Notes under the pieces: model-generated | What the model was told of the DNA's origin: nothing | What the model saw: only the letters and a program-made list of their open reading frames with translations | Database searches by the model: none | Source: Acidimicrobiaceae bacterium | GTDB taxonomy: Bacteria; Actinomycetota; Acidimicrobiia; Acidimicrobiales; Aldehydirespiratoraceae | Reading direction: 5' to 3' | DNA length: 62,284 nucleotides | Assembly (NCBI GenBank): GCA_009843735.1 | Contig: VYCW01000128.1 | Coordinates: 1 to 62,284 of the forward strand | Shown here: piece after piece, positions 29,800 through 34,381 of the stretch | Layout: every line of letters starts with the position of its first letter | How positions within the stretch are numbered: the first letter of the stretch is position 1 | Program-made: the position numbers and the translations under genes

Positions 29800-30084
29800 A
29801 TGCGGCGCTTCGTCATCGAACGGGACATACCGGACATCGGCTCGGCCGAGCGCGAGCAGTTGCGGGCTGCGGCCGGGCAGTCCAACTCGGTCCTGCAGGC
29901 GATGCAGTCCGAGGGCAAGGCCATCCAGTGGGAGCACAGCTATGTGGCCGGAGACAAGACGTTCTGCATCTATGTCTGCGACCGGGCCGAGCTGATCGAC
30001 GAGCACGCCGAGCGCAGCGGGTTCCCGGCGACGATCGTCACCGAGGTCGGCAAGATCATCGACCCGACGACCGAGAAGGGCTAG
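29800..30084 (+). CDS. DUF4242-family small protein
   Basis: 94 residues, ferredoxin-like fold predicted. FVIERDIPDIGSA at the start and IQWEHSYVAGDKTFCIYVCD and ELIDEHAERSGFPA later are characteristic of DUF4242 proteins, whose role is unsettled. The ATG has a strong AAAGGGGAGG site. It ends 11 nt before the AhpD-family gene and is likely co-transcribed with it. Confidence 0.85.
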   Translation: MRRFVIERDIPDIGSAEREQLRAAAGQSNSVLQAMQSEGKAIQWEHSYVAGDKTFCIYVCDRAELIDEHAERSGFPATIVTEVGKIIDPTTEKG

Positions 30085-30095
30085 CTGCAGCCGCC

Positions 30096-30626
30096 ATGGC
30101 GCGCATCGACTTCGGTGACGGCGAGGGGCTCGAGCGCTTCCGGATGTGGAGCCTCCAGCCCGACGTGGGCATGGCCATGGGTGCGGCCGCCAAGACGCTT
30201 TACACCAAGATCTCCCTCGACGTGCGGGTCCGCGAGATCGCCCGCATGCGAGTGGCCCAGATCAACCGGTGCCACATTTGAATTGACACCCGGTCTGCAT
30301 CGGCGATGCAGCAAGGACTCGACGAGGACCTCTACCACCACGTCTCCGAGTACACCGAAATCGGGGCGTTCAGTGAGGCCGAGAAGCTGGCGGCCGAGAC
30401 GGCCGAGCGCTTCTGCTGGGATCACGAGGCGATGATGAGCGACGAGGACTACTGGGCCCGCATGAAGGAGCACTTCACCGACCAGCAGATCCTCGAGCTA
30501 CTGACGCTGATCGGCTACTGCGTGGCCATGGGCCGCACAATGGCGATTCTCGACATCGCCAACGACTGCCCGATCAACCAAACCCCCGACCCCGCCGAGG
30601 ATCCGTCGCACTACGTCCACGGCTGA
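30096..30626 (+). CDS. AhpD/carboxymuconolactone decarboxylase family, probable selenoprotein (UGA = Sec62)
   Basis: Read through TGA at 30279-30281 this is 176 residues of the AhpD-like CMD family. The upstream half ends EIARMRVAQINRCHI, and the same frame resumes after TGA with IDTRSASAMQQGLDED and the typical C-terminal FSEAEKLAAETAERF. AhpD enzymes use a C-x-x-C disulfide for peroxide reduction; Cys59 is present and the TGA is codon 62, the second cysteine's position, giving C-x-x-U. A 7-bp hairpin with a GGC loop starts 13 nt after the TGA and fits a bacterial SECIS. The family's usual downstream His is Arg here. If no selenocysteine machinery exists in the genome, this is a pseudogene or a two-part gene. 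Confidence 0.75.
30295..30311 (+). promoter_or_regulatory. Predicted bacterial SECIS hairpin
   Basis: CTGCATC-GGC-GATGCAG: a perfect 7-bp stem with a 3-nt loop whose first two bases are G. The loop begins 20 nt after the TGA, inside the spacing usual for bacterial SECIS elements, which recruit SelB to the following codons. The hairpin is also coding sequence. Confidence 0.65.
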
Positions 30627-30636
30627 CTGCCGCGGC
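30549..30636. repeat. 88-bp direct repeat, left copy
   Basis: Matches 33666-33753 with only two differences over 88 bases. It covers the last 26 codons of the AhpD-family gene, its stop and 10 bases beyond. The two copies bracket the McrBC cassette 3117 bp apart, which resembles attachment sites of an element that integrates at a gene 3' end. Confidence 0.95.
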
Positions 30637-30917
30637 ATCTCTGTTCTCGGTGCTAGTTGGCTTCTTGCTGCGCACCAACGTCCAAAAAAGGGTCTATTCC
30701 GGTGGTCTACCGGCGGCAAGAGACTTTGATTTGAATTGAATCGAATTGAATTGAACATACTCAAATATGCGCCAGAACTTTCTTATCAACAGATGTATCT
30801 AAGTGGTTCTTGATACTAGAGACTATGACATCATAAACGGGTGGCTTGGCAACCAGTCTTGCCTGGCCGCCAAGCACCGTAGAATCCGCTTCGTCGTTGC
30901 GCCAATAGAATCGTGCT
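30637..30917. other. AT-rich leader of the McrBC island
   Basis: No confident gene. It contains an irregular (TTGAA)n tract at 30731-30755 and an imperfect 14-bp hairpin at 30840-30878 (GGTG, bulge, CTTGGC, CCAG, 6-nt loop, CTGG, GCCAAG, CACC) about 40 bp before mcrB. These may be promoter/operator or recombination features. Confidence 0.5.
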
Positions 30918-32441
30918 ATGTCAAATGGAGCGCATGATTCAGGGACTGGCGTGCCACACACGGTCAGCTCGGCGATGCAGCGAGTGCTAGAGCTCCAATC
31001 GCATCACACCTCGACGAATACTGAACCGATGCAGGAGCGCGGGTTGCTAATCCGCGAGACGATACCGGACGCTGTTAAGGCGTGGGTCAGTCACGACGGC
31101 TGGGAGGTCGAGGGGAGCGACGGTGCAGGAAGAAAGAGCCGGGTCCCATGGGTGAGAGTCTACGATAAGGGACGGAGTCCAAGTGCCCAAAGCGGCTGGT
31201 ATGTTGTCCTTCTCTTCGCCTACGACGGTTCACTCGTCGCACTCTCACTGAACCAGGGAACCACCGGCAAGAGTGCTGACTATCTATCGGAACGAGTCGA
31301 GCAGGCGCGAGAGCATCTCGCAACCAATCGCGAGACAGACATAGGACTCGCGATGGTCTTCGACCTAGCCGATCACAATGGTCTGGGCAGCAAGTACGAG
31401 GCCGCCAACGTGGTCGCCGTCTGCCATCGACAAGGCAGTGTTCCGGAAGATAGCCAGCTCCGTGATGATCTACAGAAGTTGCTGCGGATGCTGCGCCTTC
31501 TCTATGACCTGGAGGATGCATCCGAGACAAGTGGGGGGAAATCCGCTCCAATGGACACCTCTCCCGAACTATCGATTGTCGCGTTGCCTGAAACCGAAGA
31601 CTCGACTAAGGATCTCGATTGGTTGCTCAAACAAACCCTGTGGACTGAGGACGACCTCAAGGAGATCATCAACACGCTCCACGCTCGACGCCAACAGGTT
31701 GTCTTGGCGGGACCACCGGGGACTGGCAAGACTTGGACCGCTGAGAACCTGGCGCTCTACCTGACGGGCGGGAGGAAGAAAGCAGTACATACAATCCAGT
31801 TCCACCCAACTTACGCCTACGAAGACTTCGTTGAGGGTCTCCGCCCGGTACCGTCGACATCAGGGTCGATCGTGTTCAACGTCGTCACAGGTGTGTTGAT
31901 TCATGCTGCCGACCAGGCCAGGGCAGTGAATCATCCCGTGGTCCTTGTTGTCGACGAGATGAATCGGGCAAATCTTCCGAGTGTGTTCGGTGAACTACTC
32001 TACCTTCTCGAGTATCGTGAGAAAGAAGTTCGACTTCTTCGCCGGCCCAAGTTCTCGCTCCCCAAGAACCTCTATCTCATTGGATCAATGAACACGGCGG
32101 ATCGCAGCATTAGGAGCATCGATAGCGCACTCAGACGGCGGTTTGACATAATCGAGTGCTCGCCAAGTGCTCACATACTTGAAGCATATTACGAGGAACC
32201 GTCACACTCAAATGCCGTGTCAGGGCTAGCGGACGGAATGAACCTACTCAACCAAGAACTGACCTCAAGAATTGATCGTCATCACGCAGTCGGTCATACC
32301 TACTTTATGCAGGAGAGCTTCGACCGGAACGAGCTAAGGCTTACATGGACACGACAGGTCCTGCCTCTCGTTGAGGAGTATTTCTTCGACCAGCCTGACA
32401 TTGCAGAGAACTTCTCAATGGAACGCTTTTGGCCTGCGTGA
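30918..32441 (+). CDS. mcrB: McrB-family GTPase of a type IV restriction system
   Basis: 507 residues. N-terminal MrcB-type domain (about residues 10-200, ending in a RMLRLLYDLED helix) likely recognises modified DNA. The AAA+ GTPase domain has Walker A GPPGTGKT (265-272), Walker B VVLVVDEMNR (Asp346) and the McrB-specific NTAD motif (392-395) in GSMNTADRS, followed by the ALRRRF arginine region. McrB hexamers translocate or switch and activate McrC to cut methylated foreign DNA. Codon usage is far less GC-rich than neighbours, a sign of transfer. Start context is weak. Confidence 0.93.
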   Translation: MSNGAHDSGTGVPHTVSSAMQRVLELQSHHTSTNTEPMQERGLLIRETIPDAVKAWVSHDGWEVEGSDGAGRKSRVPWVRVYDKGRSPSAQSGWYVVLLFAYDGSLVALSLNQGTTGKSADYLSERVEQAREHLATNRETDIGLAMVFDLADHNGLGSKYEAANVVAVCHRQGSVPEDSQLRDDLQKLLRMLRLLYDLEDASETSGGKSAPMDTSPELSIVALPETEDSTKDLDWLLKQTLWTEDDLKEIINTLHARRQQVVLAGPPGTGKTWTAENLALYLTGGRKKAVHTIQFHPTYAYEDFVEGLRPVPSTSGSIVFNVVTGVLIHAADQARAVNHPVVLVVDEMNRANLPSVFGELLYLLEYREKEVRLLRRPKFSLPKNLYLIGSMNTADRSIRSIDSALRRRFDIIECSPSAHILEAYYEEPSHSNAVSGLADGMNLLNQELTSRIDRHHAVGHTYFMQESFDRNELRLTWTRQVLPLVEEYFFDQPDIAENFSMERFWPA

Positions 32442-33664
32442 TGCGCACGGAGACAATCATCGAGTCTCGTAGTCGTCCGCTCGATCTCAGTCATGGTCAA
32501 GCAGATGATCTTAGGCGTCTCGGTCGGCAACTCGCCTCGGACAAGGATTGGTGGGGTTCTTCTTACAAGTCGACCCAAACTCGCACAGTCATACAGTGTG
32601 AGTTGACGAAGGCAGGCCAGTATCTCGTAAGGGTTCGTGATGCCATAGGCGTCATTGGTCTGGGCGATCTTCAGATTGTTGTCAAGCCCAAGATTCCACT
32701 TAAGCACTTTTTGTTTCTCATCAAACACAGTACGCGCCTACCGCGCAATGCAGAGGATGATGCCGAACTCGAGCCTGATAAGCACTTCTTTTTCTTAATC
32801 GCGCGATGGTTCCTAAACGCGTGTCAAGACACTCTCCGTAAGGAACTTGCTCGCGACTATCAGCACACAACCGCGAACCTCACAGTCGCTCGGGGCCGAG
32901 TTCACGCCCTCACAACGACTCAAGCGCTACTCGCAGGTAGACCTAAGATTCGCTGCTCATTTGATGACTTCGGAAACGATACTCCACTCAACCGGCTCCT
33001 GAACCATGCCCTTCGGACGGTCCAACGGAACTCTGAGTTTCCGGATGAGATTCGACGTCGCGCACGCCAAGCGCATGCGCGATTTAACGATGTTGGTGAA
33101 TACCACCCGTCAGATCTGTACGCTCGGACCGATGCCCGTACGAAGCACTATCGGCGCGCCGCCGCTCTTGCGCGCCTGATCCTGATTGGTAGGGGGATGG
33201 GCATCGTGCACGGCGGGAGTCCCGGAAGCACGTTCCTCTTCTACACACCGGAGGCTATCGAAGACGGGATCCGCCATCTCCTGCGGCTCGCGCTCGCGCC
33301 TGACTGGGATGTCAAGAAGAAGGGCCGCCAACTGCCAGGGGCGAAACTACGCACACTCAATCCAGACCTCGTCTTCAACGAGAATGAAGCAATCGGAGAC
33401 ATCAAGTATCGGCTCTCGTCCGGTTCCATCGAACGACGCCACATGAATCAAGTCACTACATTTGCAGCCGGATACAAGGCAACAAGGGGTCTGCTAGTGG
33501 AATTCGGCCGTGCGGGGCAGAGAGACCACGTCAGGGTGGGCGACATCAGGATCGACACCGTCAACTGGAATATCGCCCATCTTGACCCTGCGCAATCTGC
33601 TGAGGAGTTGATCACCGACGTCCGAGATTGGCTTTCAGAGTCTCCAGAGTCCGCAAATCCATAG
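32441..33664 (+). CDS. mcrC: McrC-family endonuclease subunit
   Basis: 407 residues. N-terminal McrB-binding region includes YLVRVRDAIGVIGLGDLQIVVKPKIP, and the C-terminal PD-(D/E)xK nuclease site is visible as Asp309 in LNPDLVF and Asp320-x-Lys322 in GDIKYR. ATG overlaps the mcrB stop by 1 nt (TGATG), ensuring coupled synthesis. The stop codon lies 2 nt before the right 88-bp repeat. Low-GC codon usage matches mcrB. Confidence 0.93.
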   Translation: MRTETIIESRSRPLDLSHGQADDLRRLGRQLASDKDWWGSSYKSTQTRTVIQCELTKAGQYLVRVRDAIGVIGLGDLQIVVKPKIPLKHFLFLIKHSTRLPRNAEDDAELEPDKHFFFLIARWFLNACQDTLRKELARDYQHTTANLTVARGRVHALTTTQALLAGRPKIRCSFDDFGNDTPLNRLLNHALRTVQRNSEFPDEIRRRARQAHARFNDVGEYHPSDLYARTDARTKHYRRAAALARLILIGRGMGIVHGGSPGSTFLFYTPEAIEDGIRHLLRLALAPDWDVKKKGRQLPGAKLRTLNPDLVFNENEAIGDIKYRLSSGSIERRHMNQVTTFAAGYKATRGLLVEFGRAGQRDHVRVGDIRIDTVNWNIAHLDPAQSAEELITDVRDWLSESPESANP

Positions 33665-33665
33665 G

Positions 33666-33743
33666 CTCGACATCGCCAACGACTGCCCGATCAGCCAAAC
33701 CCCCGACCCCGCCGAGGATCCGTCGCACTACGTCCACGGCTGA
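33666..33743 (+). pseudogene. Orphan 3' end of the AhpD-family gene (right repeat copy)
   Basis: Encodes the last 25 residues of the upstream AhpD-family protein (LDIANDCPISQ...HYVHG) in the right frame to the stop, but nothing upstream of it. The repeat continues to 33753. It is probably the original chromosomal 3' end displaced by the island, with one Asn-to-Ser difference from the functional copy. Confidence 0.85.
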
Positions 33744-33778
33744 ATGCCGCGGCTCGGCCCCGCCTAAGCAGGTTCGGT

Positions 33779-34381
33779 CTAGGGGTTGCTCACCAGCGCC
33801 GCGTCCGGCTCGACGGCGCCGGTCCAGCAGTACAGCAGCACGGTCGGTGTGGCGCCGAAGTCCTGAACATGTACTTGCCAGGGCGCGTGGTGGACGGCGT
33901 CGCCCGGCCGGGTGGCGCGCCTGTTGCCGTCGCGGCCGCTGAACAGCGGCTCGCCGGCCAGGACGTGGTACAGCTCCTCGGCCTCGTGGTGGTGGGCGGG
34001 GTAATGGAGGTGCGGGCCCCACACGCCGATCCCGACCCTCACGCCCGGGTGCTCGACGATCGAGTTCGGACCGAGAAGCTGCACGTAGCCGAAGTTGTCG
34101 AGGTAGTCCCGGCTCAACACGTCGAGGTAGCCGGCGGTATGGAGCCACGGCAGAGCCGGAGCGAGACGGAGGAACTCCTCGAGGACCGCGTCGATGGCGG
34201 CATTACCGCTCGGCTCGACCGCGTCGAGGTGCCGGATGACCGGGAGGGGGTCCGGCTCGACCGCAGCCGGACAGCGGGCATTATCGAGCGCGTCGAGCAC
34301 CGTCCCGACCATCGGCAACTCGGGGACCACCGGCCGGCTGCGGTGGAACCCGGCGATGCGCCGTAGCAGCTCGTCGATCAC
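33779..34381 (-). CDS. Cupin, DMSP-lyase (DddQ-like) family
   Basis: 200 residues. The motif HYPAHHHEAEELY reproduces the spacing of the metal and catalytic residues of DddQ: Tyr127, His130, His132, Glu136 and Tyr138, with a second-strand His171 in WQVHV. The GPNSIVEH...VGIGVWGP lead-in and C-terminal TVLLYCWTG also resemble this family. DddQ splits dimethylsulfoniopropionate into acrylate and dimethyl sulfide. All key residues are present, but related cupins act on other substrates, so the DMSP role is inference. Confidence 0.72.
   Translation of the reverse strand: MIDELLRRIAGFHRSRPVVPELPMVGTVLDALDNARCPAAVEPDPLPVIRHLDAVEPSGNAAIDAVLEEFLRLAPALPWLHTAGYLDVLSRDYLDNFGYVQLLGPNSIVEHPGVRVGIGVWGPHLHYPAHHHEAEELYHVLAGEPLFSGRDGNRRATRPGDAVHHAPWQVHVQDFGATPTVLLYCWTGAVEPDAALVSNP

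What the first reader, a model, noticed from the sequence alone, without database searches (positions are those of the whole stretch)
30096..30626. Probable AhpD-family selenoprotein with a C-x-x-U redox centre
One reading frame spans 176 codons with a single TGA at codon 62. Codons on both sides are clearly the same AhpD/CMD protein: EIARMRVAQINRCHI before, and IDTRSASAMQQGLDED and FSEAEKLAAETAERF after. The TGA sits exactly where the second Cys of the CxxC motif belongs. A perfect 7-bp hairpin with a GGC loop (30295-30311) starts 13 nt after the TGA and its loop 20 nt after, matching bacterial SECIS geometry. A random nonsense mutation would not be expected at the catalytic Cys with a SECIS-like hairpin behind it. 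AhpD-like selenoproteins are a known type elsewhere; automated annotation would split or discard this gene.
Basis: partly seen in the sequence, partly recalled or inferred. Interest (0 to 1): 0.88.

Follow-up and report, generated by a model that had tools for sequence, protein, structure and literature searches.

The report
Bacterial selenocysteine-containing AhpD-like enzyme
An apparently broken bacterial gene is almost certainly intact: its in-frame stop codon is read as the rare amino acid selenocysteine at the active site of an AhpD-like redox enzyme, a known type of selenoprotein found here across a large group of mostly uncultured bacteria.

Summary
Window 30096-30626 (+) encodes a 176-residue CMD/AhpD protein with one in-frame TGA (codon 62) in a C-H-I-U motif, followed by a 7-bp hairpin that meets the published bacterial SECIS rules. 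The draft genome (84.6% complete) holds selA-selB, a selD with its own in-frame TGA, and the last 55 nt of selC (tRNA-Sec), cut by a contig end. Of 72 relatives in named genomes, mostly labelled Acidimicrobiia or Actinomycetota, 66 have TGA at this codon and 6 have Cys. The hairpin core GCATCGGCGATGC is in 62 of the 66 and 0 of the 6. The stem shows compensatory changes. A Cys clade nested among Sec genes keeps nearly the same peptide but has lost the hairpin. The fold is AhpD-like; the His found four residues after the CxxC in solved relatives is Arg in 72 of 72. AhpD-like CxxU selenoproteins have been known since 2005, so this is a new member of a known kind; no NCBIfam model reaches its cut-off for it. 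The substrate is unknown; a thiol/selenol peroxidase or reductase is most likely. In passing: the interval behind the gene is an insertion hotspot in this genus (McrBC here, toxin-antitoxin-type genes in four relatives).

The parts
30096..30626 (+). Selenoprotein gene: CMD/AhpD-like protein, 176 aa, C59-H-I-U62 redox centre
   Evidence: Frame with one internal TGA; Pfam CMD 39.4 bits; AlphaFold2 model (Cys in place of Sec) pLDDT 87.3; AhpD fold
30279..30281 (+). TGA codon 62, read as selenocysteine
   Evidence: Same codon TGA in 66 of 72 loci of named genomes, TGT/TGC in 6
30295..30311 (+). Bacterial SECIS-like hairpin: 7-bp stem, GGC loop
   Evidence: rules of PMC13188914 Fig. 2A legend
29800..30084 (+). 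SCO4226-like protein, 11 nt upstream, same strand; probably co-transcribed (inference)
   Evidence: Pfam PF14026, 64.6 bits; match in 7 of 8 congener loci (L018 partial) plus the remnant locus L055, not in L024
28821..29741 (+). PhyH-type dioxygenase, upstream in the same direction
   Evidence: Pfam PF05721, 108.5 bits
28402..28824 (+). Cupin protein, upstream in the same direction, overlaps the PhyH gene start
   Evidence: Pfam PF07883, 68.5 bits

Best explanation
The gene encodes a selenoprotein of the CMD/AhpD superfamily. Shown by sequence: the UGA is at the second position of the CxxC-type redox motif, a SECIS-like hairpin follows, and the genome has the Sec machinery. Inferred: SelA, SelD and tRNA-Sec make Sec-tRNA; SelB binds the hairpin and inserts Sec at UGA 62; the full 176-aa protein folds as an AhpD-like helical protein in which Cys59 and Sec62 form a selenenylsulfide redox pair served by the invariant Glu47. 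Most likely it is a thiol/selenol peroxidase or disulfide reductase. The substrate is not known, and the gene neighbours (dioxygenase, cupin; in other clades CoA-transferase or molybdopterin oxidoreductase) hint at a role beside catabolic enzymes rather than at one fixed pathway. The confidence given is for the selenoprotein reading; for the enzyme activity named it is about 0.6.
For: In-frame TGA, CMD match across it. SelA 369 bits, SelB 297 bits and SelD 366 bits, all over cut-off; selA and selB are adjacent; selD reads GAGUGCK through its own TGA. tRNA-Sec 3' part at G000:C45:1-55, 100% over 55 nt to a congener's ARAGORN-confirmed tRNA-Sec. tRNA-Sec over cut-off in 101 of 149 genomes (own included, where it is not) and in 20 of 21 genomes reached through the 72 loci. 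TGA at this codon in 66 of 72 loci. All 7 stem pairs in 61 of those 66; core 13-mer in 62 of 66 and 0 of 6 Cys loci. Stem on 17 of 23 held TGA rows (16 distinct): 4 of 8 pairs with compensatory changes; 0 of 500 shuffles reach the covariation score. Cys clade nested in Sec genes, SH-aLRT 100, with the stem reduced to 2, 2, 4 and 2 of 7 pairs.
Against: Folding energy of the hairpin region is ordinary. No tRNA-Sec over cut-off in this assembly; the gene is cut at a contig end and its anticodon part is not seen. One congener with the TGA gene, G004 (86% complete), also shows no tRNA-Sec, as does G157, which holds the TGA copy L132. Silent-site conservation in the genus alone is weak: 0 of 8 silent columns vary, p about 0.016, and other stretches reach zero too. 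Six more distant TGA rows left out of the pair count include two (L056, L059) in which this stem register does not form. The outermost pair forms in only 6 of 16 rows. No protein or RNA data exist here. The enzyme activity is inferred from fold and motif only.
Confidence: 0.95

Rival explanations
1. The TGA is a nonsense mutation or a sequencing error; the gene is a pseudogene.
For: A standard ORF listing splits it (30306-30626 starts at an ATG after the TGA). What looks like a truly broken copy exists in congener G013, where only codons 1-29 match.
Against: The same TGA in 66 of 72 loci and Cys in the other 6, with one other in-frame stop in all 72 matched stretches, at codon 161 of L162. Protein constraint continues past the TGA: R66, A99, F106, G146 and R147 are invariant in 40 aligned rows.
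Confidence: 0.01
2. The UGA is recoded another way: as Trp or Cys by a reassigned code or suppressor tRNA, or by SECIS-independent read-through.
For: Not excluded by sequence alone; no peptide data.
Against: Sec machinery in the genome. TGA is also the ordinary stop of this gene at 30624. In the 72 loci the hairpin goes with TGA and is absent with Cys. The aligned residue in relatives is Cys, the partner expected of Sec.
Confidence: 0.02
3. The TGA ends a short functional protein and the downstream half is a separate protein.
For: An ATG at 30306 opens a 106-codon ORF.
Against: The CMD domain match crosses the TGA, and the model of the whole chain is confident except for its last 12 residues. 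That ATG is codon 71 of a continuous homologous protein; Cys relatives are one open frame across it.
Confidence: 0.01

Closest known systems
AhpD-like and CMD-domain CxxU selenoproteins of marine metagenomes (Sargasso Sea 2005, PMC1088965; Global Ocean Sampling 2008, PMC2398784; catalogue 2026, PMC13188914)
   Same: CMD/AhpD family, CxxU motif with Sec in place of the second Cys, bacterial SECIS just downstream, Cys homologues common (passages only)
   Different: Those papers give families by COG/Pfam; their sequence figures are not held, so whether this very subfamily is among them could not be tested. The word Actinobacteria occurs in none of the three main texts, and Acidimicrobi- not in PMC13188914.
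NCBIfam NF053654 GroundWater_YciW, YciW-related (seleno)protein
   Same: Matched by all 40 aligned members and the best NCBIfam match of the window protein; also annotated as a possible selenoprotein
   Different: 46.8-46.9 bits for the window protein against a cut-off of 310: a relative, not a member
PA0269 / AhpD of Pseudomonas aeruginosa (2o4d, 2ijc, 7xw1) and Atu0492 (2gmy)
   Same: Closest solved relatives by profile (E 7e-15 to 1e-12) and by fold (E 7e-6 to 6e-5)
   Different: CxxC instead of CxxU; His instead of Arg four residues after the second Cys
Debrominase Bmp8 (6ohi, 6ohj)
   Same: Same fold family; matched by profile (E 1e-6) and by fold (E 3e-4 to 2e-3)
   Different: A more distant relative than PA0269; no sign that the window protein acts on halogenated compounds

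Membership tests
Bacterial selenoprotein gene | In-frame UGA at a position that is Cys in homologues | tested here: met
   TGA 66, Cys 6 of 72 loci; 15 Cys rows in the tree of 89
Bacterial selenoprotein gene | bSECIS: loop 3-9 nt, stem 4-16 bp, G in the first two loop positions, 16-37 nt from UGA, energy at most -7.5 kcal/mol | tested here: met
   Loop 3, stem 7, loop GGC, 20 nt, -11.2 kcal/mol for 30290-30318; rules from PMC13188914 section 5
Bacterial selenoprotein gene | selA, selB, selD in the genome | tested here: met
   All over the curated cut-off
Bacterial selenoprotein gene | selC (tRNA-Sec) in the genome | tested here: met
   Only in part: the 3' 55 nt at the start of contig C45, identical to a congener's tRNA-Sec; the anticodon part is missing from the assembly. 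Whole gene in 13 of 15 other congeners
Bacterial selenoprotein gene | Selenium in the full-length protein | not testable with these tools
   Needs 75Se labelling or mass spectrometry
CMD/AhpD superfamily (PF02627) | Profile score over the gathering cut-off | tested here: met
   39.4 bits, cut-off 23
CMD/AhpD superfamily (PF02627) | Mainly helical AhpD fold | tested here: met
   Model pLDDT 87.3, pTM 0.84; best Foldseek hits are AhpD-type structures
AhpD proper (peroxidase with the Glu-Cys-x-x-Cys-x-x-x-His relay; the relay is recalled) | Glu 12 residues before the first Cys | tested here: met
   E in 72 of 72
AhpD proper (peroxidase with the Glu-Cys-x-x-Cys-x-x-x-His relay; the relay is recalled) | His four residues after the second Cys/Sec | tested here: not met
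   Arg in 72 of 72; His in the four solved relatives whose alignments were shown
NCBIfam selenoprotein models (NF053654, NF041047) | Score over the curated cut-off | tested here: not met
   Window protein: NF053654 46.9 bits against 310, NF041047 no match at E 0.001; no NCBIfam model over its cut-off. Scores of the other 39 members of A4 against the cut-offs were not listed.

The most novel reading that the evidence does not exclude
A distinct Acidimicrobiia-centred selenoenzyme family in which the AhpD proton-relay His has become an invariant Arg, so that the Cys-Sec pair does a chemistry other than peroxide reduction (for example reductive removal of a halogen, as by Bmp8 of the same fold, or reduction of an intermediate made by the neighbouring dioxygenase and other catabolic enzymes).
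Probability: 0.12. Interest if true: 0.65.

Novelty: new member of a known kind. Interest (0 to 1): 0.42.

Why it matters
It recovers a gene that standard calling splits, and with it a selenoprotein subfamily spread through Acidimicrobiia, one bearer of which is a named Ilumatobacter strain that could be tested. The conserved SECIS core, and the nested clade that replaced Sec by Cys, kept nearly the same peptide and lost the hairpin while keeping tRNA-Sec, form a natural control that separates RNA constraint from protein constraint.

Tried and rejected
One search used the wrong Rfam family (RF00051, a microRNA) and says nothing about selC; nine tRNA-Sec matches in the own genome were all below cut-off; ARAGORN calls the eight that became loci ordinary tRNAs; the ninth was not checked. 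The second SelB-like match on contig C28 is EF-Tu, judged from its translation. One search translated selD in the wrong frame; one search is right. The second and third TGAs that one search counts in distant homologues (L041, L050, L051) lie near or after the end of the alignable protein and were read as ordinary stops; this was judged by eye and not tested. Folding energy as evidence for the SECIS was dropped. A fixed functional neighbourhood was looked for in the 72 loci and not found: neighbours differ between clades (two annotated). The Bmp8 resemblance was considered as a sign of dehalogenation and not adopted as the main reading, since ordinary AhpD-type proteins score better.

Rows left out. 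One search was given 17 of the 23 TGA rows held at that time. The six left out are more distant: all seven inner pairs form in L051 and L058, five in L050 and L052, two in L056 and L059; over all 23 rows 155 of 184 cells pair (84.2%) against 90.6% for the 17. MAFFT puts a 9-column gap into the stem for L051, so the 23 rows were counted in fixed register, without shuffles. The 112 rows hold some loci twice (genus genomes appear through the genome search and again through genome contigs; L018 and L092 have contigs of equal length); the counts used in the argument are those of the 72 loci alone. L157 (partial) was left out of the tree, which has 71 of the 72 loci plus 18 others. The tree used the quick method and flags long branches; only the well-supported nested Cys clade is relied on. 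The scan chose loci by two peptides, one of which is the stretch over the hairpin; it is present in 52 of 66 TGA and 0 of 6 Cys loci. That biases the 72 towards this peptide and towards Sec forms; it does not fix the codons.

Full report
OBSERVATION. The frame at 30096-30626 (+) is as described: 176 codons, one internal TGA at codon 62 (30279-30281), a final TGA stop, and the residues C59-H-I-U62. The hairpin CTGCATC-GGC-GATGCAG at 30295-30311 is real, 13 nt after the TGA, with its loop 20 nt after it. A standard ORF listing splits the gene. Pfam's CMD model matches residues 22-103, across the TGA, at 39.4 bits against a cut-off of 23.

SELENOCYSTEINE MACHINERY. The window is contig C30 of a draft genome of 3.43 Mb in 140 contigs, 84.6% complete. 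On contig C25 lie adjacent selA (420 aa, 369 bits, cut-off 268) and selB (572 aa, 297 bits, cut-off 242). selD on C15 has its own in-frame TGA in the motif GAGUGCK and scores 366 bits, so a second predicted selenoprotein is present. No complete tRNA-Sec is found (eight of the nine sub-threshold matches, checked, are ordinary tRNAs). A 3-kb stretch around a congener's tRNA-Sec, searched in the own genome, shows why: part of its upstream flank matches contig C96 (83%), and the last 55 nt of the 96-nt tRNA gene are the first 55 bases of contig C45, 100% identical (ARAGORN names the congener's gene tRNA-SeC with anticodon TCA). The contig breaks inside selC. tRNA-Sec over the cut-off is found in 13 of 15 other congeners and in 101 of 149 genomes of the order, own included.

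CONSERVATION OF THE TGA. Of 16 genomes of the genus (own included), 9 hold the full-length gene, all with one TGA; one holds only a remnant of codons 1-29 (G013) and 6 show none. One search covered 149 genomes, own included; 85 had a match. Its 14 best matches, down to 44% identity and into other families of the order, all have one TGA. The next seven, at 42-49%, have Cys, and further down both forms occur. Of the 14 genomes of the best matches, 12 have a tRNA-Sec over cut-off; the two without are the own genome, with the cut copy, and G004, 86% complete. In named genomes, one scan gave 72 loci, mostly labelled Acidimicrobiia, Acidimicrobiales, Acidimicrobiaceae, Ilumatobacter or Actinomycetota, among them Ilumatobacter nonamiensis YM16-303. 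The codon is TGA in 66, TGT in 4 and TGC in 2. The peptide patterns of that scan came from TGA-form proteins, and one of them lies over the hairpin (52 of 66 TGA loci and 0 of 6 Cys loci carry it), so the ratio leans towards Sec forms. One other in-frame stop occurs in the 72 matched stretches, at codon 161 of L162.

THE HAIRPIN. On 17 of the 23 TGA rows held (16 distinct) an 8-pair stem has 90.6% standard pairs. Four of the 8 pairs show changes on both sides. The covariation score, the number of such pairs and the percentage paired are reached by 0 of 500 shuffles (further pair types: 8 of 500), and sliding the partner by 1-3 columns destroys the fit; the outermost pair forms in only 6 of 16 rows. 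RNAalifold finds the inner seven pairs unaided. Of the six more distant rows left out, two form all seven inner pairs, two form five and two form two; over all 23 rows 84.2% of cells pair. In the 72 loci, 61 of 66 TGA copies have all 7 pairs and 65 have at least 6; the 13-mer GCATCGGCGATGC is in 62 of 66 TGA copies and in 0 of 6 Cys copies. Counting identical 60-nt stretches once, it is in 58 of 62. The first loop base is G in all 66 TGA copies and in none of the 6 Cys copies. Given the peptide and local codon usage, 7 pairs arise in 0.2% of random codon draws. Silent sites of codons 66-74 are invariant among the 9 congeners (0 of 8 vary, p about 0.016; other windows also reach zero) and vary in 2 of 8 when two genomes of another family are added (p about 0.0014); codons 63-74 in three Cys genera are no more conserved than the rest of the gene. 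Against this, the folding energy itself is ordinary. The published bSECIS rules (loop, stem, loop G, spacing, energy; PMC13188914, section 5 read) are all met.

A NATURAL CONTROL. In a tree of 89 rows, four Cys copies (L129, L142, L144, L156) form a clade with SH-aLRT 100, nested in a clade of 21 rows with support 97 whose other 17 are Sec copies (quick method; the Sec/Cys label needs 5 changes on the tree, of which starred branches force 3). They keep NTRAASAM of their Sec neighbours; the next residue is Ala instead of Gln or Arg. Their codons differ, and the stem falls to 2, 2, 4 and 2 of 7 pairs. Their four genomes (1.8-2.0 Mb) still have tRNA-Sec. So Sec was replaced by Cys without loss of the machinery, and the hairpin then decayed while the protein stayed almost the same. 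This is the strongest argument that the hairpin is kept for its RNA function.

WHAT THE PROTEIN IS. The AlphaFold2 model (40 sequences, Cys in place of Sec) has mean pLDDT 87.3. Its best matches in the PDB are AhpD-type proteins: PA0269 and AhpD of Pseudomonas aeruginosa, Atu0492, several peroxidase-related proteins, and further down the debrominase Bmp8; a profile search agrees. The residues at Glu47, Cys59 and Arg66 are the same in 72 of 72 loci. In the four solved relatives whose alignments were shown, the position of Arg66 is His; in AhpD of Mycobacterium tuberculosis that His belongs to the proton relay (recalled, no call). So the protein is a CMD/AhpD-superfamily member but not AhpD proper. 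For the window protein no NCBIfam model reaches its cut-off; the nearest is NF053654, YciW-related (seleno)protein, 46.9 bits against 310. Function beyond a Cys-Sec redox centre is inference.

NEIGHBOURHOOD. Cupin, PhyH-type dioxygenase, SCO4226-like protein and the selenoprotein gene lie in one direction with an overlap or short gaps, probably one transcript (inference); parts of this order recur in the congeners. In other clades a near neighbour is a CoA-transferase family III protein or a molybdopterin oxidoreductase. No partner was found that is conserved throughout the 72 loci.

LITERATURE. AhpD-like (27 sequences) and CMD-domain (4) selenoproteins with CxxU were described in 2005 (PMC1088965; passages). 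AhpD-like 1 (299) and AhpD-like 2 (70) followed in 2008 (PMC2398784; passages), and a 2026 catalogue lists several AhpD/CMD CxxU families (PMC13188914; passages and section 5). Searches for Acidimicrobiia with selenoprotein and for Ilumatobacter with selenocysteine each gave one paper, neither about this by its listing. The passages found for Actinobacteria in PMC5029168 concern other organisms, and PMC12013277 does not mention AhpD or Actinobacteria. The other hits of the searches were seen as listings only. Whether this subfamily is among the unnamed marine sequences of 2005 and 2008 could not be tested. Verdict: a real selenoprotein gene, a new member of a known kind.

Noticed in passing
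30549-30636 and 33666-33753, with 30637-33665 between them: An McrBC-type restriction module (mcrB 30918-32441, mcrC 32429-33664) is flanked by 88-bp direct repeats, 98% identical, of the selenoprotein gene's 3' end. In congener loci L018, L021, L022 and L023 the gene's 3' end runs straight into the sequence right of the module, an empty site. In the 40 other genomes searched only short partial matches to its DNA were found, in 7 of them. It looks like a site-specific or repeat-mediated insertion that rebuilt the gene end.
   Followed up: partly
L019:2032-2826, L020:2032-2717, L024:2032-2467, L025:2047-2783 (gene-sense coordinates): In four other congeners the same interval behind the selenoprotein gene holds toxin-antitoxin type frames: PIN domain, ParE, ParD and ParE in that order. 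With the McrBC copy, 5 of 9 congeners with the gene carry an insert there, so the interval is an insertion hotspot.
   Followed up: partly
L060 (G000:C15:8228-9142): selD of this genome is itself a predicted selenoprotein (GAGUGCK), with a foldable stretch behind its TGA.
   Followed up: partly
L055 (G013:C240:11129-11212): In one congener only codons 1-29 of the gene remain; a match to window 34198-34261 follows directly, as if a deletion had removed the rest.
   Followed up: no
L104, L131, L138: Records titled Euryarchaeota archaeon ARS96, Bifidobacterium breve HRS-ES8-bin-26 and Planctomycetaceae bacterium RS383 carry copies that group among those of Acidimicrobiia or Actinomycetota records; these are probably mislabelled bins.
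   Followed up: no
For example G119:C27:3752-4195, G054:C60:14302-14586, G096:C316:17109-17474, G108:C27:541361-541684: More distant CMD paralogues in the order (26-33% identity) are also listed with one in-frame TGA, so several CMD selenoprotein subfamilies may coexist there; the position of these TGAs was not looked at.
   Followed up: no
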